From: Tenrec ecaudatus
Lineage: Eukaryota > Chordata > Mammalia > Afrosoricida > Tenrecidae
Direction of reading: 5' to 3'
Assembly (NCBI RefSeq): GCF_050624435.1
Contig: NC_134546.1
Location: 40,999,501-41,063,500 of the forward strand
DNA: 64,000 nt
Below the pieces are notes generated by a model. The model was not told where the DNA came from. It searched no databases and was given only the letters and a program-made list of their open reading frames with translations. Shown piece by piece: positions 1,318 to 64,000 of this stretch. The stretch's first letter is position 1; each line of letters opens with the position of its first letter. The position numbers were made by a program, and so were the translations under genes.

Positions 1318-1605
1318 AATGAGCTGGGTTTGGTTTTCTTTTCTCTTGTTTACTGTTATAAAAACTTAAAAAATGGAAACTTAGAAATGTATTCACACAG
1401 CTTTCTCATGTTATCAGAATAAACCTCTTACCATTTTAAGGGTTTTGTTTGTTTTTCAGTTTTAGTAATATATTTCAGAAGTATGATTCTTTGGCCTATA
1501 ACTGAGAGTTTGCTATAAGAAGTTACTTGGATAGACATATACACTGAAGAGCTGTGGGAGAGACGTGAGAGCATACATGCATATATATGTTTGACTAGAT
1601 GTTTG

Positions 1606-1705
1606 TAAAAAAATACTTTCATTGGGGGTACTTCATCTCTTATCACAATCCATACATTCCTCCTATGTGTCAAGCACATTTGCACATATGCCGCCATTTT
1701 CTTTC
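1606..1705 (-). mobile_element. 2-kb retroposon, short 3'-end fragment
   Basis: The reverse complement carries the tail end of the recurrent element (ttgtgataagagatgaagtaccccca type). It is only the last ~100 bases, directly abutting a longer copy in the same orientation at 1716. Confidence 0.7.
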
Positions 1706-1715
1706 TCTTTTTTTT

Positions 1716-2635
1716 AAAATAAATCATTTTATTGGGGGCTCATACAGCTCTTATCACAATCCATACATACATTTGCTGTGTCAAGCACACTCCTACATAT
1801 GTTGCCATCATCATTTTCAAAATATTTTCTTTCTACTTGAGCCCTTGGTATCAGCTCCTCATTTTTCCCCTCCCTCCTCCGTCATGAACCCTTGACAATT
1901 TATAAATTATTATTTTTTTCATGTCTTACACTGACCGATGTCTCCTTTCACCTACTTTTCTGTTGTCCATTCCCCCAGGGAGGAGGTTATATGTAGATCC
2001 TTATAATCGGTTCCCCCTTTTTACCCCACCCCCACCCCGCCTTCCCTCCCGGTATAACCACTCTCACCACTGGTCCTAAGGGGTTCATCTGTCCTGGATT
2101 CCCTGTGTTTCCAGTTCCCATCTGCACCGCTGTGCATCCTCTGGTCTAACCAGGTTATATATAGATCATTGTGATCAGTTCCCCCTTTCTATTCCCACCC
2201 TTCCCTTACCCTCCTGGTATCACTGCTCATTATTGGTCCTGAGGGGTTCATCTGTCCTGGATTCCCTGTATTTCCAGCTCTTATCTGTACCCATGTACAT
2301 GCTCTGGTCTAACCAGATTTGTAAGGTAGAATTGGGATCATGATAGTTGGGGGGGAGAGCATTAAAAAACTAGAGAAAAGTTGCATGTTTCATAGGTGCT
2401 ACACTGTACCCTGACTGGCTCGTCTCTTCCTTGTGACTCTTCTGTAAGGGGGTGTCCAATTGTCTACAGATGGGCTTTGGGTCTCCACTCTGCACTTCCC
2501 CTCATTCACATTGATATGATTTTTTTGTTCTGGGTCTTTGATGCCTGGTACCTGATCCCATCGACACCTCATGATCACATAGGCTGGTGTGCTTCTTCCA
2601 TGTGGGCTTTGTTGCTTCTTAGCTAGATAACTGCT
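1716..2635 (-). mobile_element. 2-kb retroposon, 5'-truncated copy with internal duplication
   Basis: Antisense copy whose 3' end (aataaatcattttattggg in reverse) is at 1716. Segments 1980-2147 and 2149-2320 are two versions of the same ~170-bp block, each with ggttatat-tagatc, the gtcctgaggggttcatctg-type motif and ctggattccctg. It stops at 2632 where another copy begins. Confidence 0.8.
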
Positions 2636-2654
2636 TTTTATTTTTATTTTTTAA

Positions 2655-4260
2655 TCATGTTATTGGGACACATACAACTCTCATCACAATCCACACACAT
2701 CAGTTGTGTAAAGCACACTTATACATTCGTTGCTCCCATCATTCTCAAAACTCTTGCTTTCCGCTTGGGCTCCTGGAATCAGCTCCTCGTTTCCCTTGCC
2801 CCCCCTCCTTCCCCGCTCCCCTCATCCCCATGAACTGTTGATGATTTATAAATTATTATTTTACCATATCTTACACTGCCCAGCGTCTCCCTTCACCCAC
2901 TTTTCTGTTGCCCATCCCCCAAGGAGTTGGTTATATGTAGATCCTTGTAATCGGTTCCCCCTTTCTACACTCCCCCGCCTTCCCTCCTGGTATTGCCACT
3001 CTCACCACTGGTCCTAAGGGGTTCATCTGTCCTGGATTCCCTGTGTTTCCAGTTGCCATCTGCACCACTGTGCATCCTTTAACCAAATCTAACCAGGTTT
3101 GCAAGGTAGTGGGGGGGGGGAGGTTGTGAGTTTCAATAATGCTACCCTGCACCCTGAGTGACTCATCTTCCCATTACCCCTCTGCAAGGGATGTCCAGTT
3201 GTCTACAGATGGGCATTGGGTCCCCATCACATGCTCCCCTCATTCACGGTGATATGATTTCCCCCCCCCTTTGGTGCTTTATACCTGGCGCCCTCATGAC
3301 CCTTCATGATCACACATGCTGGTGTGCTTCTTCCATGTGGGCTTTGTTGCTTCTGGGCTAGTTGGCCACTTGTTTACTTTCAAGCCTTTAAGACCCCAGC
3401 TGCTATATCTCTCGATAGCCAGGCACCATCAGTCTTCTTCACCACACTTACTTATGCACACATTCATCTTCAGCATTTATATGGGGACGGTAATCACACA
3501 ATGATGATTTTTGTTTTTTGGTGTCTGCTACCAGATCTGTTCATCACCTCATGATCACATAGGCTTGTGTGTTTCTTTCCTGTGGGCTTTGTTGCTTCCG
3601 AGCTAGATGGCCGCTTGTTTACTTTCAAGCCTCTAAGATCCTAGACACTATATCTTTTGATAGCCAGGCACCATCAGCTCTTTTCACCACGTTTGCTTGT
3701 ACACACGTTTGTCTTTAACTATCATGTTGGGAAGGTGGGTATCATGGAATGACCATTTAGCTGAGCAAAGTGCTCTTGTAGTAAGGGAATGCGCGCGAGG
3801 AGGCCCAGTGTCCACCTGCTACCCTTCCATTAAATCTATAAATATATGCACATAAATCTATTTCCCCCATAATCATAAATATATTTATATATGTACATGT
3901 CTGTATTTAGGCTTCTGTGTATGCACTTTGCCTCCGACTCCTTTCCTATATTTACTCATACTTTCCTCCTGACCCACTACCATGTTCAGCCTTCATTCTG
4001 GTTTCAGTAATTCCTCTCAGTTGCATTGCCCTTGGTCACTCCCTACAGTGCTCCCATCCCCTCCCTGCCACTGGTTTTGAACAACTCATTCCCTTGTCCC
4101 TGGGTTGACCAACACCTCCTCCCTTCCCCCACCTCCCACTCTCCCATGTCCCCCCGGGACCATTGGTCCTGTTGTTTTCTTCTCACATTGCTTATCCAGT
4201 CTATCTTATCTAGATATACCTGCTGTCTATGCTTTTTATACAAATATACACTGCCATGAA
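2655..4260 (-). mobile_element. 2-kb retroposon, near full-length copy with internal duplication
   Basis: Antisense copy covering most of the element. A ~200-bp block (gtgggctttgttgcttc ... gatagccaggcaccatcag) occurs twice, at about 3290-3500 and 3510-3740. No open frame looks protein-like; the short frames are artefacts of T/C-rich DNA. Confidence 0.8.
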
Positions 4261-8790: not shown

Positions 8791-9001
8791 CCTATCCCCG
8801 CTAAGAAAAAAAAATACCAAATACAGAATCTTCAATCTAAAAGAAAGCAGAAAACTATACAAACAAACAAATTCAAAATGAGTCAAAAGAGAGAGCAAAT
8901 GATAGGTGTTAAGTTGTAACCTACCTATATCTGCCTTGGTTCACTTTGCAATGCACGCTGTCTTACAGCAAGCCTATTCCCATACCTGGAGGGTGGCTTA
9001 G

Positions 9002-9334: not shown

Positions 9335-9580
9335 ACTCTTGGATCACATAGGCTGGTATGTGTTTTCCATGTGAGCTTATCTTACACCTCACTTAGGTGG
9401 TTGTCTGTTTTAAGATAAGCCTTTAAGAACTCAGACACTGTTTTGTCTAATGGCCAGACACCATCTGCTGTCTTCACTACACTTTGCTATCACACCTATA
9501 TCTTCAGTGATTCTATCATGAGGCCAAGTGAGATACATGCTTTGTCCATCAGATCATTAGAGATGATGTCTGGAGTATGG
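9335..9580 (-). mobile_element. 2-kb retroposon, old diverged fragment
   Basis: ggatcacataggctggtatg, aagcctttaagaactcagac and gccagacaccatctgctgtc match the middle of the element in reverse, with more substitutions than the other copies. It shows that the family has been active over a long time. Confidence 0.65.
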
Positions 9581-11734: not shown

Positions 11735-11921
11735 CAGTGGTTCTCAACCTTCCTAATGCCATGACCCTTTATTACAGTTCCTCATGTTGTCGTGGCCCCT
11801 CCCCTCCACACACACACACCATAAAATTATTTTTGTTGCTACTTCATAACTAATTTTGCTACTGTTATGAATCAGGCGACCATGTGAAAGGGTCGTTCAA
11901 TCCGCAAGTTGAGAACCACTA
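11735..11921 (+). mobile_element. SPIN-type hAT element, 187 bp, in the FOXN2 3' UTR
   Basis: Ends CAGTGGTTCTC and GAGAACCACTA are inverted repeats with one mismatch in the last base. Perfect 8-bp duplications (atctaaaa) lie at 11727-11734 and 11922-11929. The interior has ccttcctaatgccatgaccc and ttgttgctacttcataac, the SPIN MITE sequence. It has a small cacacaca expansion. Noncoding. Confidence 0.92.
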
Positions 11922-20029: not shown

Positions 20030-20800
20030 GGGAAAAGAATTTGATTATAATCCAAAATATAAATCTATGAGTTCATATTGATATTGATGGTAGAATACAT
20101 TAGCAAATGGTGTGGAGAGAAGAAATCTCTCATGCAGAATTCCAAATAAATTATGTGGATATTCTACCCCAGCAGTGTTCTTTCCCTCGGCCTTTTCTCC
20201 CCAAATGTAGACTCATCAGAAAGTCATCAAGTAATGGGAGATTTTACAATACATATGACCCAGACCCAGACTCCAGACTCACTGCCATCTAGGCGATTCT
20301 GACGCAGCAGGTCTGTAGGCCAGAGTGAAACTGCTCCTGTGGGCTTCTGAGAGCTTTTTTAAGGAGTGGAAAGCCTTCTATTTCTCTCTCGGGGCAGCTG
20401 GGGGTTTCAAACTGCAGACCTCTTGGGTTTTCTTGTACCTGATTAGTACTCTTACCAAAAAATTGTCAAAAACTAGGCAAGTCCGCGAAATGTTCATACC
20501 CAAGATGAGTAAGGATCGTGAAACTGATAGTAATGTGTCCCCTGGATGGGAGCCCAGAACACAAAAGACATGTAACAAACCAAGGACATCTGAATAAACT
20601 ATTGACTTTTGCTAATGCTGTATCAATATTGTCCCATCCAAGTGTAAGAAATATAACTGACTGTGTGCGTGGCAGAAAGTCTATAGGAACTATTTGCTCT
20701 ACTTTTCTGAAAATCCAAACTTCCAAAACAGTAGGAGAGAAAAATGTTGAAAACGCCAAAGAGTTTTCTTTCCTAAGAAAGAACGAATACAAAAAAAAAC
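20030..20800 (+). repeat. L1M-type 3' UTR, split by a SINE
   Basis: Two parts are seen on either side of an antisense AfroSINE (20275-20452). The second part has cctggatgggagcccagaac, ggacatctgaataaactattg and gctgtatcaatattg, a typical ordered set for old L1M 3' ends, and finishes near ctgaaaatccaaacttcc. Confidence 0.7.
20275..20452 (-). repeat. AfroSINE copy
   Basis: Reverse SINE: cactgccatctaggcgattc, gaaactgctcctgtgggc, gctgggggtttcaaactgc. Inserted in the L1M 3' region. Confidence 0.75.
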
Positions 20801-20809
20801 CAAACCAAT

Positions 20810-21385
20810 TGCGTTGGTCTGGGTGGACTAGAGAAACAAATTCATGGACACTCATATGTGTATTAGAAAGAGCTTCATATACAAGAGCAGTTGAATATTG
20901 AGAAAACATCCCAGTCCAGAATAAGTGGGTAAGTCCGATATTAGCCCATATGTCTAATACCAATCTATAAAGTCCTCTTTAGACTCTGAAACACATGCAA
21001 TGACGCCGAATGCAGGAAGATCACAGGCCAGTGGGCTGGAAGTCTTGTGGATCCAGTGGCATTGTAAACATCTCTGCACTGGGGTGGGGGGAGGGGTCGG
21101 TGTCTCCACATGGTTTCTCCAGCTCCAGAGGTCTGGCTCCATCAACCTCACTCCATGTGTCTTCTCCACAGGGATGTCTAGTAGGGAGTGAGCAGAGAGT
21201 CTCAGAGGGAGTTAGTAGAGAATGAATATCTCCCACCTCCAAGGAAGAAATACAGGAGTTCCCAGAATCCTCAGAAGGCCATATGCTCACACAGAGGCCT
21301 CCTTGGCTATATCCCAATTGATAGGCTAGACTCCACCCCTACACTCTTAATCCTCAAATTGACACCAGATTATGGTGTCACCACA
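20810..21385 (+). mobile_element. solo LTR-like element, 576 bp, copy 1
   Basis: Begins TGCGTTGGTCTGGGTGGACT and ends GTGTCACCACA, so it has TG...CA ends. Perfect 5-bp duplications (ccaat) lie at 20805-20809 and 21386-21390. The body is shared with copies at 33290 and 51541 (aaaacatcccagtcc, gaagatcacaggccagtggg, tctccacatggtttctcc). Five-base duplications suit ERVL/MaLR-type LTRs. No internal retroviral genes adjoin it, so it reads as a solo LTR. Family not assigned. Confidence 0.75.
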
Positions 21386-21825: not shown

Positions 21826-23400
21826 TGAAAGCAGAAAATACCAGAAAGATGTTTATTTGGGTTTCATTGACTATGCAAAAGTATCCAACCAGGCGGGCCA
21901 TAATAAACTGTGGATGAAACCATAGGAATTCCAGGATAATTCATTGTGTTCATGGAGACCCTGTGCAGGAAAGATGTTTATCCGGAATGTATCTTGTCAC
22001 CATACTTAGTCAATCTGTTTGCTGAGCAAATCATCTGACACGCTGGACTGCCTGAAGAAGAAGGAGCCATCGGGATTGGAGGAAGGCTCAATGTGCAGAT
22101 GACGCAACTTTGCTTGCTGAAGGCCAAGAAGCACTTACTGATGAAGATCCAAGACTACATTCTTCAGTATCGATTACAACTCACTGTAACGAGAACCCAA
22201 ATCCTCACCACTGGATCCCTAGAGAGCAACGTGATCTATGGATGAAGGATGGCCAAGGATTTCACGGTTCTTGGATCCACAATCAACACCCATGCAAACA
22301 ACAGTGAAGACATCAAACCACGGTTTGCGGCCACAAAAATGGGATCCCTGCCTACTGCTGAAGGGAAACCAAACCCCTCAGAGATGGGATCAGGTTTCTT
22401 CAATTTCTCCCTGACCAAATGACAGAAATGGGGTTTGGATACATTAGGCAAAGAAAAGGGGAGAGGCTTGGGAAAAGGGTGTCGACAACCTGGTATTTCC
22501 CTCATGGGGCGTTAGGCACATACATCACGTCCTCTTCTCTACACCTCGCTGCCACCACCACCCCCACACACACACCCCACCCCTGGCAGTGAGGGCACAA
22601 TGAGCCACTTCTCTTCTTCTCGACTTAAAGGAATGAGCTGTCCTCTAAACAAAAGCGTTTGTTTTTGGCTTACACAAATTACCTTTACCTGAATCCTCTG
22701 GAAACTAAAACAAATCAGAGTGAAATCATAAACTTCTTAGTAACTTTTGAACCATTTCCATATGTATTTTACTATAATCTAGTTAATGGGTTTTGTCCCT
22801 AAATCACACAAATAACAATTGCATTAATACTTCTCAGGGAAAACAGCAAACCACATTAATTAGTCACAAACTAAATTATAAAGGTGAGCAACATGCGTGG
22901 AATTTTAACAGCGCCCTTTTCAGTATTGAATTCAGTAAAGACACCGTGCTGACGGCTAAGGTGCACCTGACCCAAACCTTGCTATTTTCCTTCAACTCAT
23001 CTGCATATGAAAGCTGGCCACTGAACAAGGAACACGGGGGAATAATTGGTACATTGGAGTTCCGGAACGGCCAAGAGAGTACCGTGGGCTGACAGAGGCA
23101 CAAACAAATCTGTCTTGGAGGAAGTTCAACTAGAATAGTCCTTGGATGGGAAGAGGGGGAGACTTCATCTCCCTTACTTTGGACATGTGATTAGAAGAGT
23201 CCAAAGCCTGGAAAGGGACACCATGCTTGGTAAAGGAGGGTCAGAAGAAAAGAGGAAGCCCTTCCGGGGGATAGATGGACACAGGGCTGCAACCGTGGGC
23301 TCAAACAGAATGAAGGCTGCAGGACTGCAGGACTTCCACCCAGCAGGGCATTGGGCTACTTTGAGGCAGAGTCGACTTGACAATGCAACAGGGATAAAAG
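21826..23400 (+). mobile_element. RTE-class LINE, decayed reverse-transcriptase region
   Basis: Part of an RTE (BovB/RTE1-like) ORF. At 21830-22330: aaaatccagaaagatgtttat-type start, the region with SPYLVNLFAEQI-like residues, atgtgcagatgacgcaactt (the Y/CADD box) and gatccacaatcaacaccc. At 22880-23400 the C-terminal part resumes (gtgcacctgacccaaac, tactttggacatgtgattagaag, aaaagaggaagccc). About 540 bp (22331-22879) between the halves is not RTE. Stops and frameshifts are many; it is inactive. Confidence 0.8.
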
Positions 23401-29892: not shown

Positions 29893-29902
29893 AAGTGCCA
29901 GA

Positions 29903-31896
29903 GAACCAGTGGAGAGGTCTGGGGGGGCCAGCCCCAATCCCAAATACTAAGTGGACACCTGCCCCTCCCCCAAGAAGAATTTAATTTCAAACGACGGCAT
30001 TGAATCTACAGCTGCAGGAGAGGGACAGATCTGATCAGAGCACACGGGTGCTGATGAAGGGGGAGTAGGAGAAAGTGGAGCACATCCTGGCCCACCAGGC
30101 CTTGAGAACGATGATCCCAGTTAGAGCAGCCAGTCCACAGAGAAGACCGCATGGCCAGCCCCACTATGAGACATGACACCCCTCACTGACCCAAAGCTCT
30201 ACAAAGGACAACACTGGAGACACAGTGTGGGAATTGCACCTGATCTGATGCCACCACACCGAGGCAAAACACTAAGGGGGTGCAACAGAACAGCAAGATA
30301 ATGGAGCAGCGAGGTCCCCAGGGAATGCTGAAGGTGGACTTTGGGGCCAGGGCATGGTGCCCCAACAGACTGGACTGGAAAACACTCCTAAAAGTCAACA
30401 AACAATCCTTGAACTAACTACAAGCTTTTCTTTCTTGTTGTGTTGGGTTTTTTTTTTGTCATTGGGTTGTTGTTGTTTTGTTGTATATTGTTGCTTGGTT
30501 TTGCTCTGTCTTGTTTTTGTGCATGTTATTATCTCCACAGGTCTGTCTAAATAAGATAGGCTGGATGAACAATCTGGAGGAGAAAACAACGGACCGCCAG
30601 TTCTGGGAGGACATGGGAGGGCGGGGAGGTAGTGGTGTTAACAAACCCAGGGACAAGGGAACAACAAGTGATCCAAATTGGTGGTGAGGAGGGAGTGGGA
30701 GGCCTCGTAGAACATGATCAAGGGTAATGTAACAAAGAGGAATTGCTGAAACCCTGGTCGTGACGGAGCATGATAGTGGGACAGGAGGAAAGTCAAGGGC
30801 AATTGAGGAAAGAGCTGGGAGGCAAAGGGCATTTATAGAAGTCTAGATAAAGACATGTATATATGCAAATATATTTATATATGAGGATGGGGAAATAGAT
30901 CTATGTGCCTGTTTTTGTAGGTTTAGTATTAAGGTAGCAGAAAGACATTGGGCCTCCACTCAAGTACTCCCTCAATGCAAGAATACTTCTTCTATTAAAT
31001 TGGCATTCTAGGATGCTCACCTTCCCAACACAACCAGTGAAGACAAAGAGGGTAAATAAGCAAATGTGGTGAAGAAAGCTGATGGTGCCCAGCTATCAAA
31101 AGATATAGCATCTGAGGTCTTAAAGGCTTGAAGGTAAACAAGCGGCCATCTAGCTCAGAAGCAACAAAGCCCACATGGCAGAAGCACACCAGCCTGTGCG
31201 ATTATGAGGTGTTGAAGGGATCAGGTATCATCAGAACAAAATAATCTTACCATCGTGAATGAGGAGGGGAGTGCAGAGTGGAGACCCAAAGCCCATTTGT
31301 AGGCAACTGGAGATCCCCTTGCAGAGGGGTCTCGGGGAGGAGGCGAGACAGACAGGGTGAGATGTCGCCACGATGAAACATACAACTTTCCCCAAGTTCC
31401 TAAACGCTTCCTCCCCCGCACTATCCTGATCCCTATTCTACCTTGCAAGTCTGGCTAGCCTAGAGGATGTGCACTGGTACAGATAAGAACCAGAAACACA
31501 GGGAATCCAGGGCGGATGATCCCTTCAGGACCAGGAGTGTGAGTGGCAATACTGGGAGCGTAGAGGGAGGGTGGGCTGGAAAGGGGGAACCGATTACAAG
31601 GATCTACATGTGACCTCCTCCCTGGGGGATGGACAACAGAAAAGTGGGTGAAGGGAGATGTCGGACAGGGCAAGATATGACAAAATAATAATTTATAAAT
31701 TATCAAGGGTTTATGAGGGAGCGGGGAGCAGGGAGGGAGGGGGAAAATGAGGAGCTGATGCCAGGGGCTTAAATGGACAGCAAATGTTTTGAGAATGATG
31801 AGGGCAATGAATGAATGTACCAATGTGCTTTACACAATTCATGTATGTATGGCTTGTGATAAGAGTTGTACGAGCCCCCAATAAAATTATTTTTTT
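29903..31896 (+). mobile_element. 2-kb retroposon, best full-length candidate
   Basis: The longest copy, about 1994 bp in sense orientation. Landmarks in order: ggagcacatcctggcccacc (30076), gcaaaacactaaggggg (30264), a T/G-rich tract (30430-30530), gtgatccaaattggtggtg (30669), catgtatatatgcaaatat (30855), ggcttgaaggtaaacaagcg (31125), cctaaacgcttcctcccc (31398), gaaccagaaacacagggaatc (31487) and the end gagcccccaataaaattatt (31871). AATAAA at the end and a short A/T tail mark a retroposed RNA 3' end. A 10-bp repeat (aagtgccaga) lies on both sides, at 29893-29902 and 31897-31906. The longest frame is ~120 codons without domains, so it appears noncoding. Confidence 0.8.
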
Positions 31897-31906
31897 AAGT
31901 GCCAGA

Positions 31907-33190: not shown

Positions 33191-33289
33191 AATAATAGGT
33201 AAACAAATGATTAGTATCAAAATACATACAGCTGTATGCCAATAGAGCTGAACATTTAGGTAATGAATAATTACATAAAAAATTGAAAC

Positions 33290-33943
33290 TGTATTAGTCT
33301 GGGTGGACTAGAGAAACAAATTCATAGGCACTCATGTGTAACAGAGGCATTTATGTCAAAGAGTGAGTCCCTAATAAAATGTAAAAAAAGAAAAGAGGAG
33401 AAAAAAATGATTAGGGCAAAGACTGTACAGATGTGCTTTATACAATTGATGTATGTATATGTATGAACTGTGATAAGAATTGTATGAGCCCCTAATAAAT
33501 TGTTAAAATTAAAAAAAAAAAAAAAGAAAACATCCCAGCCCAGTCCAGATCAAGTCCATAAGTCTGACATTACCCCATATGTCAATACTAGTCCATAAAT
33601 TCCTCTTTAGACTCACACAGCCATGCGATGATGCTGAATGCAAGAAGATCACAGGCCAGTGGGCTGGAAGTCTTGGGGATCCAGCAGTGGTATAAGCACT
33701 TCAGCACTGCGTGGGTCTCCACATGGTTCCTCCAGCTCCAAAGTTCTGATTCTGGCTCAATCAGCATAGCTCCATGTGGCTTGTCAGCAGGAAGAAGCAA
33801 AGAGTGTGTGTCCCACCTCCAGGGAGGAAGACAGGAGTTCCCAGAATCCTCAGGAGAAGGTCACACAGAGGCCCCATTGGCTATGACCTGATTGACAGGC
33901 TAGACTCCACCCATTCTCAGGTTGACAGATTATGTAACTGCCA
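33290..33943 (+). mobile_element. solo LTR-like element, copy 2, interrupted
   Basis: Starts TGTATTAGTCTGGGTGGACT and follows copy 1 to gattatgtaactgcca. About 170 bp near its start (33362-33530) is replaced by one or two 3' tails of the 2-kb retroposon; the LTR resumes at gaaaacatcccagcc. Target duplication is imperfect (gaaac before, gaact after). Confidence 0.7.
33362..33530 (+). mobile_element. 2-kb retroposon tails inserted in the LTR
   Basis: gagtccctaataaaatgtaaa is a minimal tail. A ~130-bp end fragment follows (tgtgctttatacaattgatg ... gtatgagcccctaataaatt) with about 15 A residues. Two tails in succession suggest two insertions or a duplication. Confidence 0.7.
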
Positions 33944-33983: not shown

Positions 33984-34194
33984 CAACAGACAAGTAACCA
34001 TAGATAAGTAGAAAAGTTTGGCAGGCAACTGATCACCTATACCTAATTGGTTGAAAGCACCAGTTCAATGATGTAGCAGGTGAGTTCTAATCTCTCAAAG
34101 GACAAATAATTTCTGTATTCTTTCAACTGTCCCATAGGATAATGAGAAAGGGGGAGTGTTTTAATTTATTTCACAAGGTTATAAACTTCAGTTA

Positions 34195-34735
34195 CCAATA
34201 ATGAAACTCACAGCCTTCCTCTAGTTCTTAAACGCTTCCTTCACCCGCCCCTACCCACCCCCCCACAACTATCATGATCCCAATTCTACCTTGCAAACCT
34301 GGTTAGACCAGAGGATGCACAGTGGTACAGTTGGGATCTGGAAACAGGGAATCTAGGACAGATGAACCCCTCAGGACCAATGGTGAGAGTGGTGATACCA
34401 GGAGGGAAGGGTGGGTAGAAAGGGTGAACCTATCTCGGGGATATACATATAACCTCCTCTCTGGTGGATGGGCAGCAAGAAAGTGGGTGAAAGGAGACGC
34501 CAGGCAGTGTAATATAGGATAAAATTATAAATTATTAAGGGTTCACGAGGGAGGGGGGAGCGGGGAGGGAGGGCGAGGGAAAAAGGGAAATGAGCTGATT
34601 CCAGGAACCCAAGCGGAAGGCAAACTTTGAGAATGATGAGGGCAACGAATATATAAGGGTGCTTTACTCGATTGGTGTATGGATGGATTGTCATAAGAGT
34701 TGTATGAGCCCCAATAAAATGATTTTAAAAAAAAA
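34195..34735 (+). mobile_element. 2-kb retroposon, 5'-truncated copy
   Basis: Covers the last ~540 bp: ttcttaaacgcttccttc, catgatcccaattctacc, aggacagatgaacccctcagg, and the end gagccccaataaaatgat with a short A tail. Confidence 0.85.
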
Positions 34736-34749
34736 CCAACTTCTGTTCC

Positions 34750-35180
34750 CAAAACTTCCAAAACAGCACAAACTCTCTAGAAGAGTTCATTTTCACCCAT
34801 AAAACTGGCAAAAATCTGCAAAGTTAATTTAACTCGATGGCAGCCTGCATGTTGGTAGACTTTGGTTCAACCATTCTGGATGGCTCCCAACATACGTACA
34901 GTGTTTGAATGTTCAATGTAAGGAATTTATCTCAAGAAAATGAGACCGTCAGCATGCAAAACTGCCCAGTATTATCCTGCATTCACCACGGCATCGTTTA
35001 CCTTAGTGAAACCACGAATGCCCATCAGTTCAGAGTGTGAAAATCTGACACAGATGGCAACGTCCAACTGCAGCTTTTAGGAGGGGTAATGTACATGTTC
35101 TGACATAAAAAAAATCCATCTACAAAAGTGCAAAAGGAGATCAGGACAGGACGTGCAGCAGGATGCTACCTTTGACTCCG
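34750..35180 (+). repeat. old L1-like fragment, tentative
   Basis: ggaatttatctcaagaaaatg, catcgtttaccttagtg and cacgaatgcccatcag follow an old L1 ORF2/3' motif order. Very diverged. Confidence 0.35.
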
Positions 35181-35184
35181 TCGC

Positions 35185-35410
35185 ATGTATGTTGGACATG
35201 TTATCAGAAGAGACCAGTCCCTGGAAAAGGCCATCATGCTCGGCAAAGGGTCAGTGAAAAGGAGGAAGGCCTTTGACGAGATGGACTGACACGTGGCTGC
35301 AGCGCTGGATTCCCACCTAATGATTGTGAGGCGGGGGCGGGGCGGGACGGTGTTTCATTCAGTTGTACATAGTGTCATGTCAGAACTGACTTGCCTGCAC
35401 CAAACAGCCA
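35185..35410 (+). mobile_element. RTE-class LINE 3' end
   Basis: tatgttggacatgttatcag, gaccagtccctggaaaag, catcatgctcggcaaag and gtgtttcattcagttgtac are the C-terminal coding and tail region of RTE1-like elements. Confidence 0.8.
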
Positions 35411-37329: not shown

Positions 37330-39640
37330 AAGAAAAAGGAATTGCTAACCATTTCAGAAGAATTATCTCCTAAAAAACCAAACGAAATAGCAGCTAAACT
37401 GTCACATATTGAAAACCTCATGAATACGAGAACATTGTCAGAGATAGTTCCAGAGGATGAGCTGTCTCTGGCCAGAAGGCACTCAGTTTTTGGCTAAGGA
37501 AGAGCTGCCTTCTCGAAGTAAAGTCAGTCACAATGATTCAGATGAGCAAAGCTTACAGGACCTTCATTCACTGGTGGGGCAAACTCAAAATGAGAAGAAA
37601 TAGCTGCTGACAACTATTAATAATTGAAACTTGGAAATGTATGAAGTGTGAATCTAGGAAAATTGGAACTGATCAAAAATGAAATGGATCACATAAAGAT
37701 GAATACTCTAGGCACTAGATTAGAAATGAACTAATATTGGCCACCATAAATCAGATAGTCATATGGATTACAAATTCAAAAGGAATGGCAATTTCAAGAG
37801 GTATTTATCACAAAAAGGGCATTTCAAGATCTATTTTGAAATATAATGCTGTCTGTGATAGGATAATATCTATCTGCATACCAGAAATCCAATTAGTACA
37901 ACTATTATTCAAATTTATGAACCAACCACTAAAGCTAGTGATGAAAAAAAATTCAACAATTCTACCAATGTCTTCTGTCTGAAATTGATCAAACATGCAA
38001 TCCAGATGCATTGATAATTATTGGTGATTGGAATGCAAAAGTTGGAAACAAAGAGGAAAGAACAGTAGCTGGAAAATAGGGCCTTGGGGGTAAAAGCAAG
38101 GCTGGATATCACATCATAGCACTGCAAGAGCAACAGCTCCTTCATCTCAGCTACCTTTTTCAACACGGGGACTTCTCCAGATGGAAGACATAGAAATCAC
38201 ATTCCCTACGTCTATGGGAAGAGACAATGAAGAGATTCAATATCAGCAGCTAAAATGAGGCGAGGGCTGGACTGTGGATCATCAATTACTCATATCTAAG
38301 TTCAGGTTGAAGCTGAAGAAAATGAAAAGTCCATCAGAGCCAAATTGTAACCTTGCATCTCTCCCACCTTAATTTTGAGAACATCTCAAGAACAGATTTG
38401 AAGCATTGAACATTAATGACAGGAGGCCGGATGAGCTGTGGGATGGCATCAAGAATATTGTCCATGAAGAGTGCAAAAAGTCAATTACAAGACAGGAAAG
38501 AAAAGATCAGAGTGGGTGTCAGAAGAGATTCTGAAATTTATTCTTAATCACAGAGTGGCTAAAGCAAGTAAAAGAAATGATAAAGTCAAAGAATTAAATA
38601 AAAAATTTCAAAAGACCGTTCAGGAAGGCAAAGTAACATATGATAATGAAATGTGCAAGAACCTAGGGTTAGAAAACTAAAGAGGTAGAATATGCATAGC
38701 ATATCTTAAAACAAAAGAACTTAAGGAAAAAATCCAAGGCTCGAGTTGCAATATTGAAAGGTTCTATGGGAAAAACCATGAGCAATGCAGGAAGCATGAA
38801 GAGAATCTGGAAAGAGTTGACAGAGCCACTGTACTAGAAAGAACTAGTCCACAATCCAACTTTTCAAGAGCCAGAACATGGTCAAGGACCAATGGTAGTA
38901 AAGGAAGAAGTTCAACCTGTGTAGAAAGCATTGTCCCAAAACAAAATTCCATGAATCAATGGAATACCAATCAAAATGTTTCAACAAGCTGATGAAGCAC
39001 TGGAAGCACTCACTCATCTAAGCCAAGAATTTGGAAGACAGCTACTTGGCCAACTCCCTGGAAGAGATTCATATTTATACTGACCCCAGAGAATCTGGCA
39101 CCCAACAGAATGCTCAAATGATAGAACGATGCTATTGATGACACGTAATAGTGAAATGTTACTGAAGAGCATCCAACAATGTTTGCAGCACTGCAGTGAC
39201 CAAAGGTTGCTAGAAGCTCAGGGCAGATTCAGAAGAGGATGTGGAACAAGGTATAGTATTCCTGACATCAGATGGATCTTGGCTGAATGCACAGAATACC
39301 AGGAAGGTGTTTATTTGTGTTGTATTTATGCAAAGGCATTCAAATGTGTGGATCATAACAAATTATGGATAGCCTTGAAAAGAATGATAATTTCAGAACA
39401 CTTCATTGTGCTCATGTGGGACATATACATAGATCTAGAGCCGTTGTGAGAACAGAACAAGGGCACACTGCGTGGTTTAAAATCAGGAAAGGTGTGTGTC
39501 AGGCTTGTATCCTCTCACTACAATTATCCAAACTCTATGCTGAGCAAGTCATCAGAGAAGCTGGATTTTATGAAGGAGGAGGAGGCATCCGGATTGGAGC
39601 AAGTCTTATTAACAAACAACATTCAGGAGGGCAACAAATG
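37330..39640 (+). mobile_element. RTE-class LINE, long decayed copy lacking the 3' part
   Basis: The largest RTE fragment. It carries the apurinic-endonuclease-like domain (gataattattggtgattggaatgc at 38014, ggacttctccagatggaag at 38168, gactgtggatcatcaattac at 38270) and then the first part of the reverse transcriptase (ggcagattcagaagagg at 39221, gacatcagatggatcttgg at 39264, RKGVCQACIL at 39487). It ends at tcttattaacaa, just before the catalytic YADD box. Frameshifts and stops are numerous. It is an inactive relic. Confidence 0.85.
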
Positions 39641-40313: not shown

Positions 40314-41084
40314 CATATGCCCCCTGCACACTTCAGAATGTTTGTGGGAAAAATCTGTTATCTTTTAATTCCATTTTCCTATGAACTTTTTGAAGCTCCT
40401 TCATCAAAAAAATTTGTGGGAAAATGTAATCAAATGAAAATGGAATTTCCCCACAAACTTTTTTCAGCGTCACTGCTTCTGGATCCTCTAGAGAACCTAC
40501 TCTAAGAAGCCAATTTTGTATATTCTGTGACACAACCAGATATTGTCCTTCAAGATCTCTTCATGTACATGCCTAAATGCCACTGTGACTTAGGTGTTAG
40601 GCATAGCAAACTTTCCTAAAGGCTTAGAGTAATGGAGGGATTGTCCTGCAGAAAATGCAAACACTGAACATTAAGTATGAGAAGTACTTATAAATGTACC
40701 TTGGAGTCTCTCAGTGGTACAAACCGTGAATGTGTTTAACTAACAGGAAAGGGCGGAGGTTCCAGTCCATCCAGATGTACCTCAGAAGAAAGGATGGAGG
40801 ATTCCGTTCCAAAGAGTCGGTCATGTCTATGCAGACACCCATGGAGTCATCAGATGGTAACGATACGTTGGCCATTCTCAAGATGGGGGGCATCTGACCA
40901 CTTCTAGCTGGGCTCCAGTTTACTCCTATGATTCTGGGTTTCCCCTTCTTTGATTACCCACTTCACTGATTTCAAGTTCCCAAGATCCCAAATTAGTGCT
41001 CATTTTATTTTCTTCTTCTTTTTCCCCCATTGGGTAATTCTGCTCCCACAAGACTTCTTTTATTTTATTTTTTTCTTGACTATA
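40314..41084. other. unassigned sequence with one AfroSINE
   Basis: A diverged sense SINE lies at 40707-40862 (tctcagtggtacaaaccg, aggttccagtccatccag, cctcagaagaaaggatgg). Nothing else recognised. Confidence 0.5.
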
Positions 41085-42990
41085 ACGTTTTTTAAAAAAT
41101 CATTTTATTGAGGGCTCATACAACTCTTATCACAATCCATCCATCCATCCATTGTGTCAAGCAAATTTGTACATTTGTTGTCATCATTATTTTCAAAACA
41201 TTTTCTTTCTACTTGAGCCCTTGATATCAGCTCATTTCCCCTCTCCCTCCCCCACCCTTCCTTCCTCATGAACCTTTGATAATTTAAAAATTATTATTAT
41301 TTTTTCATGTCTTACACTGACCGATGTCTCCCTTCACCCACTTTTCTGTTGTCCATTCCCCTGGGAGGGGGTTATATGTAGATCATTGTGATCAGTTCTC
41401 CCTTTCTCCACCAACCTTTCCCTTACCCTCCTGGTATTGCTACTCTCATTATTGGTCCTGAGGGGTTTATCTGTCCTGGGTTCCTTGTGTTTCCAGCTCT
41501 TATCTGTACCAGTGTACATCCTCTGGTCTAGTTGGATTTGTAAGGTAGAATTGGGATCATGATAATAGCGGGAGGAAGCATTCAAGAACTAGAGGAAAGT
41601 TGTAGGTTTCATCTGTGTTATACTGCACCCTGACTGGCTGGTCTCCTCCCCGAGACCCTTCTGTAAGGAGGTGTCTACAGATGGGCTTTGGGTCTTCACT
41701 CCACACTCCCGCTCATTCACAATGATATTTCATTCTTTGATGCCTGATACCTGATCCCTTAGACACCTTGTGATCACACAGGCTGGTGGGCTTTGTTACT
41801 TCTCAGCTAGATGGCTGCTTGTTTATCTTCAAGCCTTTAAGACCCCAGATGCTATATCTGATAGCCGGGCACGATCAGCTTTCTTCGCCACATTTGTTTA
41901 TGTACCCATTTGTCTTCAACAATTGTGTCAGGAAGGTGAGCATCAAGGAATACCAGGTTAATAGAACAAAGTGTTCTTGCATTGAGGGAGTACTTGAGTA
42001 GAGGCCCAATGTCCATCTGCTACCTATGTACACAGATCTATTTCCCCATCATCACATATGAATATGTTTACATATGTACATGCCTGTATTTAGACCTCTA
42101 TAAATGCTCTTTGCCTCCCAGTTCTTTCCTCTATTTTCTTTTACTTTCCTCTTGTTCCACTATCATGTTCAGCCTTCATTTTGGTTTCAGTAATTCCTCT
42201 CAGTTACATTGTCCTTGATCAAGCCCTACCAGGTCTCCTATACCCTCCTTGCCAATGATTTTAGATCATTTGTTGTTCCCTTGTCCCTGGGTTTGTTAAC
42301 ACCCACTTCCATTCCCCCATGTTCCTTTCCCCCTCTCCCATGTTCTCCCCAGAACCGTTGGTCTCATTATTTTCTACTCCAGATTGTTTATCCCACCTAT
42401 CGTATCTAGGTAGACCTGCAGAGATAATAATATGCACAAAAGACAAGACAGAGCAAATCAAAGTAGCAAAACAACAACAACAACAAAAACTCAATGACAA
42501 AATAAAAGAAAAGCCTGTAAATAGTTCAAGGTCTGTTTGTTGACTTCTAGGAGTGTTTTCCTGGCCCCAAAGTCTATTTCTGGTATTCCCTGGGGACTTT
42601 GTTGCTCTGTTCCCCTTGCTGTTCTATTGCAAACCCTTAGTGTTTTGCCTTAGGGTGGTGGGGTCATGTCGGGAGCAATTCCCACAATGTCTCCAGTGTT
42701 GTCCCCCATAGCACTATGGGTCAGTAAGGGACATGGTGTCATATAGTGGGGCTGGCCCTATGGTCATCTCTGTGCATTGGCTGTTCTGAGCAGGAATATT
42801 GTCTTCAAGGTTTGGTGGGCCAGGATGTGCTCCACTCTCTCTCCCTCCCCCTTCATTTGCTCCCATGTGTTCTGATCAGACATGTCCCTCGCCCTGAGCT
42901 GTAGCTTAATAGCCGTCTTCTGAAGTGAATTCTTCTGTGGGGAGGTAGACAGGGGGCGGGGCAGGGGACGGGGTCTGTCCATAGTGCTCA
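41085..42990 (-). mobile_element. 2-kb retroposon, near full-length copy
   Basis: Antisense copy of about 1.9 kb. It begins with the reversed tail (atcattttattgagggctc) and extends to the same 5' region as the copy at 29903 (gaattcttctgtggggagg, then ggggtctgtccatagtgc). Two independent copies reaching the same left region argue for a defined full length near 2 kb. Confidence 0.82.
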
Positions 42991-43119
42991 CTTTTCCAGG
43001 TGAGACGTTTACCTGAACCTCAATTACTTTACCTTATTTTTTTTCAAACAAAACTCGTTTTTAGGTGAGGAGAAGGATACATGATTTGAAGTCTAGTCCC
43101 ACTCTCTCTCTCTCTCTTT

Positions 43120-43665
43120 TTAATTAAATGATAATTTTATTGGGGGCACTTAGAGCTCTTATAACAATCTATACATAAATTATATCAGGCATATTTGTAC
43201 ATGCGTTGCTATCATTATTTTCTAAACATTTGCTTTCTATTTGAGCCCTTGGTATCAGCTCCTATTTTTTCCCTCCCTCCTCCTTCCCCACCCTCATGAC
43301 CCCTTGACAAATTATAAATTATTATTATTTTCATATCTTACACCTACCACTGTCTCCCTTCTCCCATGGTTTCTGTTTTTCATCCTCCAGATGGTTGGGG
43401 GGTGGTTATGTGTCGATCATTGTAATTGGTTCCCCCTTCTCCCCTCCACCCACCACCTTCACCGTATCCTCCTGGTATCGCTACTCCCATTCCTGTTCCT
43501 GGATTCCCTATGTCATGAGCTCTTATCGAGCCTACAGTGAAAGGCAGGACTGGGGTCATGATAGTGGGGGGTGAGGAAGCCTCAAATAACCAAAGGTGTT
43601 TCATCAGTGCTATACTGCACCCTGGTTGACTTATCCCTTCCTTGTGCCCCTTCTGTCGGGGGGTG
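43120..43665 (-). mobile_element. 2-kb retroposon, 5'-truncated copy
   Basis: Reversed 3' ~545 bp: gataattttattgggggcac, gcccttggtatcagctcc, catgatagtggggggtgagg, ending at ccttctgtcgggggg. Confidence 0.8.
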
Positions 43666-44689
43666 GGTGGTGGTCTTTTTTTTTTTCCTTCATCTTTTCT
43701 AGAACAAGATATAGCCATATAATGACTTATTCTACAGGCTTGTTTAACAGTATTTTACTTTGCTCCATGAACAGACTTGGCCTTAAGAACACCAAACCAA
43801 TGAACGATGAACGTACATACACAAGGCTTCCTTTATGCCTGGGCTCTCTACAGCTAGCAGGGGAAGACCTCTGAGCTTGCAGAGAATTTGTGCATTCAGA
43901 AGTCAAGGAAGAGATAGGGTAATGCAAATGAAGGCCAATTGAGGGGATTGGCATTCCAAAGAGGGCTGGTAGCTAAATGGAGGCTTCCTTCCTTCCTGCA
44001 GAATTGTACAAATGCTTCCATCAGAAACCAACTGGCTCTGCTTAGAGGACTGCAGCCTGGCTGCTCCCACAGGGCAGGTACTTGGCACGTTCCTTTCAGG
44101 ACTCCAGTGCCGTGTCTAGCACACAGTGGATTCTCAGGAAGGCTGAGAGACTCTTGAGTTCACATTTATATTCTCCTGAAACTGAGCAGTGATGAGGAGC
44201 GTGAGGGAATTGGACTTTGTTGGGGGGAAGACGTGTTAGAAATGGTAGGGAAGGAGGCAACTTGAAAGAGGCCAGTCCAGGTTGCTGACAGAGTGAGGGT
44301 GCATCGTGGCTCCAACACTTTGGAGTAAAGCAGTGAGTGAGGAGATGGGATACTGAGAGCATCATTGGAGAGTCAATGAGAGCAATGAGTTGGCTATTTT
44401 TGTTCCATGAGAGAGATTCATCTATATTTCAGTACTGAGGAGGTAGCTGAGTGCACAGCCTCATGAAGTAGCAAACAGAAGAGAGAGTGAAACCCAGGGA
44501 GCTCTATTAAACAGCACGTAGATTTTTAAAGCAGCCTCCATTGTCCAAATGGATTCCAAAGGGAGCCCAGACAACCGAAACACAATGGCAGGCGAAGACA
44601 TGGTCTAGATGGCAACTGTGGAAAACCTACAAAATTTCTCAGTTTCATTACATTGAGCCTGGCCAACAAAGCTTTTTATTTCATTTTTT
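43666..44689. other. unassigned sequence
   Basis: No gene recognised; short open frames lack domains. A few L2-like words near 44110-44140 are too weak to call. Confidence 0.4.
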
Positions 44690-44785
44690 TAAAAAAAATC
44701 ATTTTATCGGGAGCTCTTACAGCTCTTATAACAATCCATACAACAATTGTATCAAGCATATTTGTACATAAGCTTTCAAAAAATG
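44690..44785 (-). mobile_element. 2-kb retroposon, short 3' fragment
   Basis: aaatcattttatcgggagctc, ataacaatccatacaac and atcaagcatatttgtacat are the reversed last ~95 bp. Confidence 0.7.
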
Positions 44786-44907: not shown

Positions 44908-47036
<2,129 letters not shown>

Positions 47037-47904: not shown

Positions 47905-48471
47905 GAATTAGGTTGAAAGTAGAGAATACCAAAAAGATGCTTACTGGTGTTTTATTGACAGCGCAAAGGCATTTGACACCATGGATCATAATGAACCGCA
48001 GAGAACACTGGGAAGAATGGGAATTCCGGAGCTCTTACTTGTACCCTCTTTCGCAGATGAGTCACTTAAAGAGGTTTAAAATCAGGAGAAGCATGTGTCA
48101 TCCTTTTCTTCAAACTCAATCAATAAGTGGGCTGAACAAATGATTTGAGAAGCTGGGTTACATGACGAAGAACGCAGCATCAAGACTGAAGGAATGCTTA
48201 TGAACAACCTGCGATATGCAGACGACACAGCTTCGCTTGCTGGGATCTAAAGAGACTTGAAGCACTTCCTGATGAAGATCAAAGACGACTTCCTCCGGTA
48301 AATCCTCAATGTAAAGAATGTAAAGAAAACAGAACTTCTCACAACGGACCCAAGAGACAACATCATGATGAATGGAGAAAGGATTAAGTTGTCAAAGGTT
48401 TCATTTTACTTGAAACCACAGTCAATGTTCATGTAGGCAACTCAAGACATTTCAACTGGGCAAATCTACAG
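47905..48471 (+). mobile_element. RTE-class LINE, reverse-transcriptase part (left piece)
   Basis: gacagcgcaaaggcatttgac (the FDxAKAFD-like region), YADDTASLAG box coded near 48216, and acagaacttctcacaacgg. Broken by stops. The same element resumes at 49785 and 50261. Confidence 0.82.
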
Positions 48472-49765
48472 GAGAAAAGAATGGGACTGACAGTTCGGGA
48501 GACAAGGGAGAGTGGGAGGTGGGGGGTAAGGTAGTGGTGTTAACAAACCGAAGGACAAGGGAACAACAAGTGATCCAAATTGGTGGTGAGGAGGGTGTAG
48601 GAGGCCTGGTTAGGCTTGATCAAGGGTAATGTAACCAAGAGGAATTACTGAAACCCAAATGAAGACTAAGCATGATAGTGGGACAAGAGGAGAGTCAAAG
48701 GAAATAGAGGAAAGAGCTAGAAGGAAAAGGACATTTATAGAGGTCTAAATAAAGACATGTACATATGCAAATATATTTATATATGAGGATGGGGAAATAG
48801 ATCTATGTGCATATATTTATAGGTTTAGTATTAAGGTAGCAGAAGGACATTGGGCCTCCACCCAAGCACTCCCTCAATGCAAGAATACTTTCTTCTATTA
48901 AATTGGCATTCTATGATGCTCACCTTCCTGACACAACTGCTGAAGACAAATGGGTACATAGCAAATGTGGTGAAGAAAGCTGATGGTACCCGGCTATCAA
49001 AAGACATAGTGTATGGGGTCTTAAAGGCTTGAAGGTAAACAAGCGGCCATCTAACTCAGAAGCAACAAAGCCCACATGGAAGAAGCACACCAGCCTGTGC
49101 GATCACGAGGTGTCGAAGGGATCAGTTATCAGGCACCATCAGGACAAAAAATCTTATCATAGTGAATGAGGTGGGGAGTGTGGAGTGGAGACCCAAAGCC
49201 CATTTGTAGGCCACTCGAGCCAGTCAGGGTGCGATGTAACAATGATGAAATATTCAATTTTCCTCTAGTTCCTAAATGCTTCCTCCTCTCCCACTATCAT
49301 GATCCCAATTCTGCTTTACAAATCTGGCTAGACCAGACGATATACACTGGAACAGATAGGAACTGGAAACACAGGGAATCCAGGGCGAATGATCCCTTCA
49401 GGACCAATGATGTGAGTGGCAATACAGGGAGGGTAAAGAGAGGGTGGGTTGGAAAGGGGGAACCGATTACAAGGATCTACATTTGACCTCCTCCCTGGGG
49501 AATGGACAACAGAAGAGTGAGTGAGGGGAGACATCGGACAGGGAAAGATATGACAAAATAATAATTTATAAATTATCAAGGGTTCATGAGGGAGTGGGGA
49601 GCGGGGCGGGAGGGGAAAAATGAGGAGCTGATGCCAAGGGCTTAGGTGGAGAGCAAATGTTTGAGAATGATGAGGCCAATGAATGTACAAATGTGCATTA
49701 CACAATTGGTGTATGTATGGATTGTGGTAAGAGTTGTATGAGCCCCTAATAGAACAATTTTTAAA
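48472..49765 (+). mobile_element. 2-kb retroposon inserted in the RTE element
   Basis: Sense copy of ~1.3 kb, 5'-truncated inside the element (first shared words: agtgggaggtggggggtaag, caaccagaggtta-free region, gtgatccaaattggtggtg at 48572). It ends gtatgagcccctaatagaac and an A-rich tail (49760-49783). Confidence 0.85.
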
Positions 49766-49784
49766 ATAAACAAATAAATAAATG

Positions 49785-50091
49785 AAGTTCGAAAGAGCAG
49801 AGATGTCACTTTGAGAATGAAGATACACCTGACCCAAGTCATCGACTTTTCTTTGCATTTTATGCACATGGAAGCCAGACAATGACTAAGGAAGATGCAG
49901 ACAAAAGGATGCATTTGAAGTACAGTGTTGACGAGGAACACTGACTTATACAAGGAACTGCCAGGAGAAGGAACAAGTCTCTTTGGGAAGAAGTACATCA
50001 GGATTGCTCCTTGGACGTGAGGATGGTGAGACTTCATCTTTCACACTTTGGACCGGTTATCAGGACCTCAGGCTTGGTACAGTGGACTGAA
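49785..50091 (+). mobile_element. RTE-class LINE, middle piece
   Basis: Continues the element after the retroposon: gagatgtcactttgagaatg, acctgacccaagtcatcg, gaaccaggagaaggaac-like and atcaggattgctccttgg. It stops at an AfroSINE. Confidence 0.82.
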
Positions 50092-58704: not shown

Positions 58705-59160
58705 CTTTTTAAATTTTCTTTTTTTAAAAAATCAATTTATTAGGGGCTCATACAACTCTTATCACAATTCATACATATACATACATCAATTGTATAAAGC
58801 ACATCCATACATTCCCTGCCCCAATCATTCTCAAAGCATTTGCTCTCCACTTAAGCCCTTTGCATCAGGTCCTCTTTTTTTTTTCTTCCCCTCCCTCATG
58901 TGCCCTTGGTAATTTATACATCGTTATTTTGTCATATCTTGCCCTATCCGGAGTCTCCCTTCCCCCCCTTCTCTGCTGTCCCTCTCCCAGGGAAGAAGTC
59001 ACATGTGGATCCTTGTAATCAGTTCCCCCTTTCCAACCCACTCACCCTCCACTCTCCCAGCATCACCCCTCACACCCTTGGTCCTGAAGGTATCATCCAC
59101 CCTGGATTCCCTGTGCCTCCCGCCCTCATATGCACCAGTGTACAGCCTCTGCCCTATCCA
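58705..59160 (-). mobile_element. 2-kb retroposon, 5'-truncated copy
   Basis: Reversed last ~455 bp: aatcaatttattaggggctc, tcttatcacaattcatac, atgtggatccttgtaatcag, ctggattccctgtgcctcc. Confidence 0.85.
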
Positions 59161-59404
59161 GCCCGCTTTTTAAATTTTCTTGAGAGCAGTTTACTTGCAC
59201 ACTCAGGCTGTAAGACCAATCCTTCTCTTTTGTCCTAGAAGCCAAAGGCTTTGTGTTTGTCACAAGGCCCTCAGCAGTGGTCTCTGTCCCCTCTCTTCCT
59301 GCCTCCCCACTCCTCCTCCACCGCAAAACTGCCTCTTTGCCCTCCCCTGAGCAATGCACTTCAGGGGGGTTACCAGGACACCGCAGATGTCCCACCCCTG
59401 CTCA

Positions 59405-63869: not shown

Positions 63870-64000
63870 ATACATGTTAAGAATTAAGGTTGCAGATGGA
63901 TATTGGGCCTCTACTCAAGTACTCCCTCAACACAAGAACACTGTTCTAATAATCTGGCATTCTATGATGCTCATCTTCATAACACAATCACTGAAGACAA
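63870..64000 (+). mobile_element. 2-kb retroposon, cut by window end
   Basis: ggatattgggcctctactc, caagtactccctcaacac and ctatgatgctcatcttcat match the middle of the sense element; it continues beyond the window. Confidence 0.8.

What the first reader, a model, noticed from the sequence alone, without database searches (positions are those of the whole stretch)
29903..31896. A ~2-kb noncoding, AATAAA-tailed retroposon dominates the window
About 14 copies, roughly 10 kb in all, share one 3' end (gagcccccaataaaat plus a short A tail) and differ in their 5' truncation, as expected for LINE-driven retroposition. I see no protein-like frame in any copy. The two longest (29903-31896 and 41085-42990, opposite strands) both reach the same left region. 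This suggests a fixed length near 2 kb rather than random truncation of a longer LINE. It is either an unusually long LINE 3' UTR or a non-autonomous unit using LINE enzymes. I do not recognise the family.
Basis: partly seen in the sequence, partly recalled or inferred. Interest (0 to 1): 0.7.

Follow-up and report, generated by a model that had tools for sequence, protein, structure and literature searches.

The report
Abundant noncoding retroposon in an afrotherian
A roughly 2,000-letter stretch of DNA with no recognisable gene has been copied many times through RNA into this mammal's chromosome, apparently by borrowing the enzymes of the common LINE-1 jumping gene; it looks like a lineage-specific repeat family rather than a new kind of element.

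Summary
Fourteen copies (10.6 kb, 16.6% of the window) are found by BLASTN and by a profile; none on the reversed window. Twelve keep a shared polyadenylation-type 3' end, with an A-rich run in 10. They differ in 5' truncation; five have convincing target-site duplications. Eight open frames tested match no protein family.

The mobilising LINE can be narrowed. The window holds many RTE/BovB ORF2 relics, and one unit copy (48463-49785) lies directly behind one, as if it were its 3' UTR. But ORF2 resumes after that copy's tail, so it is best read as an insertion into an old RTE relic. Four of four RTE relic ends resemble the AfroSINE tail; 0 of 12 unit ends do. This argues against the known elephant RTE derivative RTE1-N1_LA and for LINE-1 mobilisation.

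Whether it is a stand-alone unit of about 2 kb or an unusually long LINE-1 3' UTR is unresolved: the genome search did not complete (13 tries) and no repeat library was available. I favour stand-alone, modestly.

The parts
29909..31904 (+). Reference copy, longest: head (about 29909-30545, with a T-rich stretch at its end), body and 3' end; TSD at both ends
29895..29908 (+). 5' target-site duplication of the reference copy (AAGTGCCAGAGAAC; 3' partner AAGTGCCAGACAAC just behind 31896; limits read by eye, the match may run on a few bases)
   Evidence: p about 0.003 in 300 shuffles
30545..31896 (+). Body shared with the shorter copies; G-rich tract at about 31707-31743
31872..31887 (+). 3' end motif GAGCCCCCAATAAAAT (polyadenylation-signal-like)
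41081..43000 (-). Second near-full-length copy (aligned from reference base ~29964 to the tail); its 5' limit is uncertain and could lie up to about 115 nt further out, where the next copy's tail begins
48463..49785 (+). 5'-truncated copy that lies inside an RTE/BovB ORF2 relic
47915..48455 (+). RTE ORF2 relic left of that copy (BovB residues 552-722 aligned)
49787..50064 (+). RTE ORF2 relic resuming right of that copy (BovB residues about 761-781 and 818-853)
2641..4229 (-). Truncated copy with an internal tandem duplication of about 196 nt; 10-nt exact TSD if taken as one insertion
1699..2644 (-). Truncated copy with an internal tandem duplication of about 168 nt
1591..1697 (-). Short 3' copy
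9342..9523 (-). Internal fragment of a copy, no 3' end
33354..33380 (+). Probable further, very short 3' piece
33405..33520 (+). Short 3' copy inside another interspersed repeat (20788-21338 family)
34193..34740 (+). Truncated copy with TSD ACTTCAGTTACCAA / ACTTCTGTTCCCAA
35533..36209 (+). Truncated copy with TSD AAACTGCCCACAGAAT / AAACTGCCTCCGGAAT; lies after an RTE C-terminal relic and its 3' end
43116..43669 (-). Truncated copy just upstream of the 41081-43000 copy
44681..44772 (-). Short 3' copy
58712..59190 (-). Truncated copy with a 16-nt exact TSD (AGAAAATTTAAAAAGC)
63873..64000 (+). Copy cut off by the window end, behind RTE relic 62433-63744

Best explanation
The unit is a non-autonomous, non-coding retroposon of about 2 kb in an afrotherian mammal. 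It is transcribed (presumably by RNA polymerase II) as a polyadenylated RNA and inserted by the LINE-1 machinery: endonuclease nick at an A-rich site, priming on the poly(A) tail, reverse transcription that usually stops early. Shown here: shared polyadenylation-type 3' end, A-rich run in 10 of 12 copies, 5' truncation, target-site duplications on five copies, no recognised coding frame, no RTE-type tail. Inferred: the polymerase, LINE-1 as donor of the enzymes, and that about 2 kb is the full length.
For: The 12 copies with a 3' end share it; the hexamer AATAAA is exact in 7 and has one or two changes in 5, and an A-rich run follows in 10. Convincing TSDs on 5 of 12 (reference p about 0.003; 58.7 kb 16 of 16, 0 of 300 shuffles; three more p 0.033-0.047), 10-18 nt; four start with A as printed, the reference one does if extended by eye. 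A four-fold G-run tract lies 177-206 nt from the slice end in 6 of the 9 copies long enough; LINE-1 3' UTRs carry such a tract and end in poly(A) (PMC5135761, passages). RTE fails: RTE ORF2 is found on both sides of copy 48463-49785, and 0 of 12 unit ends against 4 of 4 RTE relic ends match a recalled AfroSINE tail. Stand-alone length: no copy of 12 exceeds ~2 kb, and the two longest seem to end close together (chance 0.045 in simulation; with no longer copy 0.005). No LINE-1 ORF2 or ORF1 match lies in the window (one hit, E=0.005, on an RTE relic; ORF1 none at E<=1).
Against: Seven of 12 copies gave no convincing TSD. TSD starts are A-rich but do not spell a clean TTTT/AA site, and five sites are too few. 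The reference copy has almost no A tail. The 5' end of the second long copy is not established (p=0.47) and it may be longer than the reference. Such density is more typical of the 3' end of an autonomous LINE than of a parasite of one. With 12 copies, none longer than 2,050 nt is expected 31% of the time even under open-ended truncation. The length tests were framed after seeing the data and use an assumed length for one copy.
Confidence: 0.5

Rival explanations
1. It is the 3' UTR (1.3-2 kb) of an afrotherian LINE-1 subfamily; the copies are ordinary 5'-truncated LINE-1 insertions and the two 2-kb copies end there by chance.
For: 3' end, TSDs and G-rich tract are LINE-1-like. [quoted passage not shown] High density is what an autonomous LINE's 3' end would show.
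Against: None of the 14 copies in this window is joined to LINE-1 ORF2, and the window has no LINE-1 ORF2 match to a recalled human probe. A 2-kb 3' UTR would be about ten times the ~200 bp given for LINE-1 (PMC5135761; other mammals may differ). The two longest copies seem to end close together.
Confidence: 0.35
2. It is an internally deleted derivative of the RTE/BovB LINE (5' end plus 3' UTR), like RTE1-N1_LA of the elephant, moved by RTE enzymes.
For: RTE1-N1_LA is listed as an elephant element with an RTE 5' end and RTE1_LA as partner (PMC3747384, table passage). RTE relics are frequent in this window, and two unit copies stand behind RTE relics on the same strand (48463 and 63873). All five accepted TSDs start with A, as Bov-B ones do (PMC13295347, passages).
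Against: At 48463-49785 RTE ORF2 is found again behind the unit. RTE relics run on to the C-terminus and a different 3' end; 0 of 12 unit ends match that tail (best p 0.055). The unit ends in a polyadenylation-type end, whereas Bov-B LINEs end in microsatellite-like repeats (PMC13295347). The head has no BovB match beyond chance.
Confidence: 0.05
3. It is a family of retrocopies of one host long non-coding RNA or of another unrecognised element class.
For: No recognised coding frame, polyadenylation-type end, TSDs; a pyrimidine-rich stretch ending in CAG|GT at the head/body border looks like a splice acceptor (sequence; by eye).
Against: Copies lie about 7% to 28% from a crude consensus, more like a long-lived repeat lineage than a burst from one gene; density is high.
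Confidence: 0.1

Closest known systems
SVA / LAVA composite retroposons (hominoid primates)
   Same: Non-autonomous, non-coding, moved in trans by LINE-1 (PMC7353768 and PMC4432496, starts of abstracts in the listing; PMC5753468, passages). That SVA is about 2 kb, polyadenylated and often 5'-truncated is recalled.
   Different: No tandem array within the reference copy, other host group, far higher density in this window; Alu or retroviral parts were not searched for with a probe
LINE-1 3' UTR (L1 clade)
   Same: Polyadenylation-type end, A tail in most copies, short TSDs, G-rich tract near the end
   Different: 1.3-2 kb against ~200 bp (PMC5135761, passages); no ORF2 attached in the 14 copies here
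HAL1 (half-L1)
   Same: Non-autonomous LINE-1 derivative of mammals (PMC5753468, passages)
   Different: HAL1 encodes ORF1p; no ORF1 match to a recalled human probe here at E<=1
RTE1-N1_LA (elephant) with RTE1_LA
   Same: Afrotherian, non-autonomous (PMC3747384, table passage)
   Different: Paired with RTE1_LA by its tail; this unit has no such tail and one copy sits inside an RTE relic
AfroSINE
   Same: Afrotherian retroposon without coding capacity
   Different: tRNA promoter and RTE1 tail (PMC3747384); no similarity to the unit beyond chance (recalled probe, E 6.7)

Membership tests
LINE-1-mobilised non-autonomous retroposon (SVA-like in the broad sense) | Polyadenylation signal and A tail at one fixed 3' end | tested here: met
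   shared end in 12 of 12 copies that keep it; AATAAA exact in 7; A-rich run in 10
LINE-1-mobilised non-autonomous retroposon (SVA-like in the broad sense) | Target-site duplications of LINE-1 type | tested here: inconclusive
   5 of 12 copies with convincing TSDs, A-rich start, no clean TTTT/AA motif
LINE-1-mobilised non-autonomous retroposon (SVA-like in the broad sense) | No coding capacity | tested here: met
LINE-1-mobilised non-autonomous retroposon (SVA-like in the broad sense) | Defined full-length 5' end | tested here: inconclusive
   two long copies agree to ~55 nt only
LINE-1-mobilised non-autonomous retroposon (SVA-like in the broad sense) | Mobilised in trans by LINE-1 proteins | not testable with these tools
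   needs a cell assay
SVA / LAVA proper | Central VNTR array | tested here: not met
   no tandem array reported within the reference copy
LINE-1 (as its 3' UTR) | Continuity with LINE-1 ORF2 upstream | tested here: inconclusive
   none of the 14 copies in the window; no LINE-1 ORF2 match in the window. The rest of the genome could not be searched
LINE-1 (as its 3' UTR) | G-rich polypurine tract near the 3' end | tested here: met
   6 of 9 long-enough copies by a G3+ x4 pattern
RTE1-N1_LA / RTE-derived | RTE-type 3' end | tested here: not met
   0 of 12 unit ends (best p 0.055) against 4 of 4 RTE relic ends (p 0.002-0.041), recalled AfroSINE tail as probe (two relic slices were lengthened, where they had stopped short)
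RTE1-N1_LA / RTE-derived | 5' end of RTE | not testable with these tools
   no RTE1 5' sequence at hand
HAL1 | ORF1 coding region | tested here: not met
   recalled human ORF1p probe, no hit at E<=1; a diverged ORF1 could be missed
Any family in Dfam or Repbase | Sequence match to a catalogued repeat | not testable with these tools
   no repeat library was available

The most novel reading that the evidence does not exclude
A stand-alone, non-coding, RNA-polymerase-II-type retroposon of about 2 kb, unrelated to SVA, has parasitised LINE-1 in an afrotherian lineage and spread to LINE-like density: an independent and far more successful counterpart of the hominoid SVA elements.
Probability: 0.3. 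Interest if true: 0.6.

Novelty: new member of a known kind. Interest (0 to 1): 0.35.

Why it matters
The long non-coding parasites of LINE-1 best described are those of apes (SVA, LAVA). If this unit is stand-alone, the same life style arose independently and reached LINE-like density, at least in this window, and it offers an independent test of what makes an RNA a good LINE-1 substrate (G-rich tract, tail). If it is a LINE-1 3' UTR, it would be an unusually long one. Either way the copy at 48.5 kb is a warning: adjacency to an ORF2 does not prove a 3' UTR unless the ORF2 is shown to stop there.

Tried and rejected
Unit as the RTE 3' UTR: I held this, because two RTE relics stand directly upstream of unit copies; rejected after mapping the ORF2 residues on both sides.

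RTE1-N1_LA identity: suggested, rejected on the 3' end. The 5' half of that test could not be done. In one search only 2 of 4 RTE relic ends matched the AfroSINE tail; on checking, two slices had stopped short of the relic's end, and with longer slices 4 of 4 match (p 0.007, 0.041, 0.006, 0.002).

Exact co-termination of the two longest copies: not demonstrated.

Antisense open frames of 117-185 aa in four copies: no Pfam hit; dN/dS between copies 0.43-0.71; 16% of neutral simulations of one pair are as low as 0.55. Put down to composition, since the sense strand is purine-rich.

TSD search: 15 rows for 12 copies with alternative 5' ends. I dropped the row for 1.7-2.6 kb (p 0.003) because the match is unit sequence of a neighbouring copy, and do not count the 33.4 kb row because it is an A run, which the short piece found explains as that piece's tail. 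The 2641-4229 copy gives p 0.033 if taken as one insertion and p 0.083 if it starts at its second half.

Structured RNA: none in Rfam (whole window at gathering score; the reference copy at E<=1). Copies elsewhere: 0 exact tail matches in viral contigs and genome contigs, as expected for a mammal sequence. Tail letters in papers: 0 papers for three strings. Literature searches (listings, and passages of ten papers, for one also its outline and abstract) showed nothing that I could recognise as this unit. That is no proof that none is in print, since repeat libraries are not papers.

Full report
What is there. BLASTN of the reference copy (29893-31905) against the window gives 16 aligned pieces, itself included. 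A profile made from the copies finds the same 14 and no more, and nothing on the reversed window. Twelve keep the 3' end; 9342-9523 is an internal fragment and 63873-64000 is cut by the window end. A further, very short 3' piece probably lies at about 33354-33380. The 14 copies sum to 10.6 kb, 16.6% of the window (slice lengths, cluster 1591-4229 counted once). They lie on both strands.

Ends. The 12 copies with a 3' end share it: GAGCCCC(C)AATAAAAT or a variant (AATAAA exact in 7 of 12), some 10-12 nt rich in T, and then an A-rich run in 10 of 12; the reference copy has only two A's before its duplication and the 1.6 kb copy has a weak run. Target-site duplications were looked for in 15 rows covering the 12 copies. 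Five are convincing: reference (p about 0.003), 58.7 kb (16 of 16, 0 of 300 shuffles), 34.2 kb (p 0.047), 35.5 kb (p 0.040) and the whole of 2641-4229 (10 of 10, p 0.033; p 0.083 if only its second half is taken). The copies at 48.5, 42, 43, 44.7, 1.6 and 1.7 kb gave none that counts; the 33.4 kb match is an A run.

Length. Slice lengths of the 12 run from about 90 to about 1,990 nt. Only the reference and the 41081-43000 copy reach the head. They align from reference base ~29964; the first ~55 nt could not be matched (p=0.47), and the second copy could run up to about 115 nt further, to the tail of its neighbour. Under open-ended exponential truncation the two longest of 12 lie within 60 nt of each other in 4.5% of simulations, and two copies above 1,930 nt with none above 2,050 occur in 0.5%. 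The tests were framed after seeing the data and one length is assumed, so they suggest a fixed 5' end and do not prove it.

Not coding. Eight open frames of 117-185 aa from seven copies match no Pfam family at E<=1. Four copies keep an antisense frame; dN/dS between copies is 0.43-0.71, and 16% of neutral simulations of one pair are as low as 0.55. The longest frame in a majority consensus (152 aa) is not longer than in shuffles (p=0.09).

Not RTE. A recalled Bov-B ORF2 protein finds RTE relics at 21827-22323, 23055-23279, 35110-35283, 37889-39613, 47915-48388, 49957-50064, 52254-52096, 62149-62000 and 62433-63744. At first sight the 48463-49785 copy is the 3' UTR of the relic before it. But ORF2 is found again behind its tail: residues 552-722 lie before it, 758-781 (E 0.004, flank searched alone) and 818-853 (E 2e-6 alone, 0.002 window-wide) after it; the right flank also matches the RTE relics at 23.1 kb (82 nt, 74%) and 52 kb (102 nt, 72%) as DNA. 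The joined flanks align over 552-853, though most of that score comes from the left side. The simplest reading is that the unit inserted into an RTE already present; two separate RTE relics that happen to lie in order on both sides are less likely. No target-site duplication was found for this copy, with either 5' limit. All four RTE relic ends tested resemble the 3' end of a recalled AfroSINE (p 0.007, 0.041, 0.006, 0.002) and none of 12 unit ends does (best p 0.055) (in one search two relic slices had stopped short and only two of four matched). The relic at 62433-63744 also has a unit copy behind it, 130 nt away; the window ends before its other side can be read. RTE1-N1_LA, a non-autonomous elephant element listed with an RTE 5' end and RTE1_LA as partner (PMC3747384, table passage), is thus not a good fit.

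LINE-1 is the best candidate for the enzymes. A polyadenylation-type end, short duplications starting with A, and a tract with four or more G runs 177-206 nt from the slice end in 6 of 9 copies long enough fit LINE-1, whose 3' UTR is described as about 200 bp with a polypurine tract that could form a G-quadruplex, followed by poly(A) (PMC5135761, passages). TSDs starting with A are also seen in Bov-B (PMC13295347, passages), so they do not decide by themselves. No LINE-1 ORF2 or ORF1 match was found in the window with recalled human probes (one ORF2 hit of E=0.005 falls on an RTE relic; ORF1 none at E<=1).

Stand-alone or 3' UTR. [quoted passage not shown] Against it stand the lack of any LINE-1 ORF2 junction in the 14 copies and the near-common 5' end. 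I put 0.5 on a stand-alone unit and 0.35 on a LINE-1 3' UTR. The decisive genome-wide search did not complete (13 tries) and no repeat library was at hand, so whether the family is already catalogued is unknown; given its density I expect that de novo repeat libraries of the host contain it.

Host. Eighteen AfroSINE-like aligned pieces with a recalled probe, together with the RTE relics, point to an afrotherian mammal. The species was not determined.

Noticed in passing
17933-18352 (+): Processed pseudogene of ribosomal protein L29 (Pfam Ribosomal_L29e, E 3.4e-8).
   Followed up: partly
about 45766-46185 (+): Fragment of a retrocopy of histone-binding protein RBBP4 (PDB sequence match E 3.8e-18 over 53 residues near its C-terminus).
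   Followed up: partly
21827-23279, 35110-35283, 37889-39613, 47915-50064, 62433-63744 (+); 52254-52096, 62149-62000 (-): Many degraded RTE/BovB ORF2 relics, no LINE-1 ORF2 found.
   Followed up: yes
2641-4229 and 1699-2644 (-): Two neighbouring unit copies each carry an internal tandem duplication (about 196 and 168 nt, 79-80% alike) and abut tail to head.
   Followed up: partly
10177-10728 (+): Open frame of 183 aa; no Pfam match above cut-off and no significant PDB match.
   Followed up: partly
20788-21338, 33272-33912 (+), 52037-51658 (-): Another interspersed repeat, about 70-81% alike, within which the 33.4 kb unit copy lies.
   Followed up: no
8997-9134, 11735-11871, 58105-58250 (+): A further short interspersed repeat (72-82% alike).
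   Followed up: no
about 30515-30545 (+): Pyrimidine-rich stretch ending in CAG|GT at the head/body border, splice-acceptor-like by eye; the 2641-4229 copy begins close to it.
   Followed up: no
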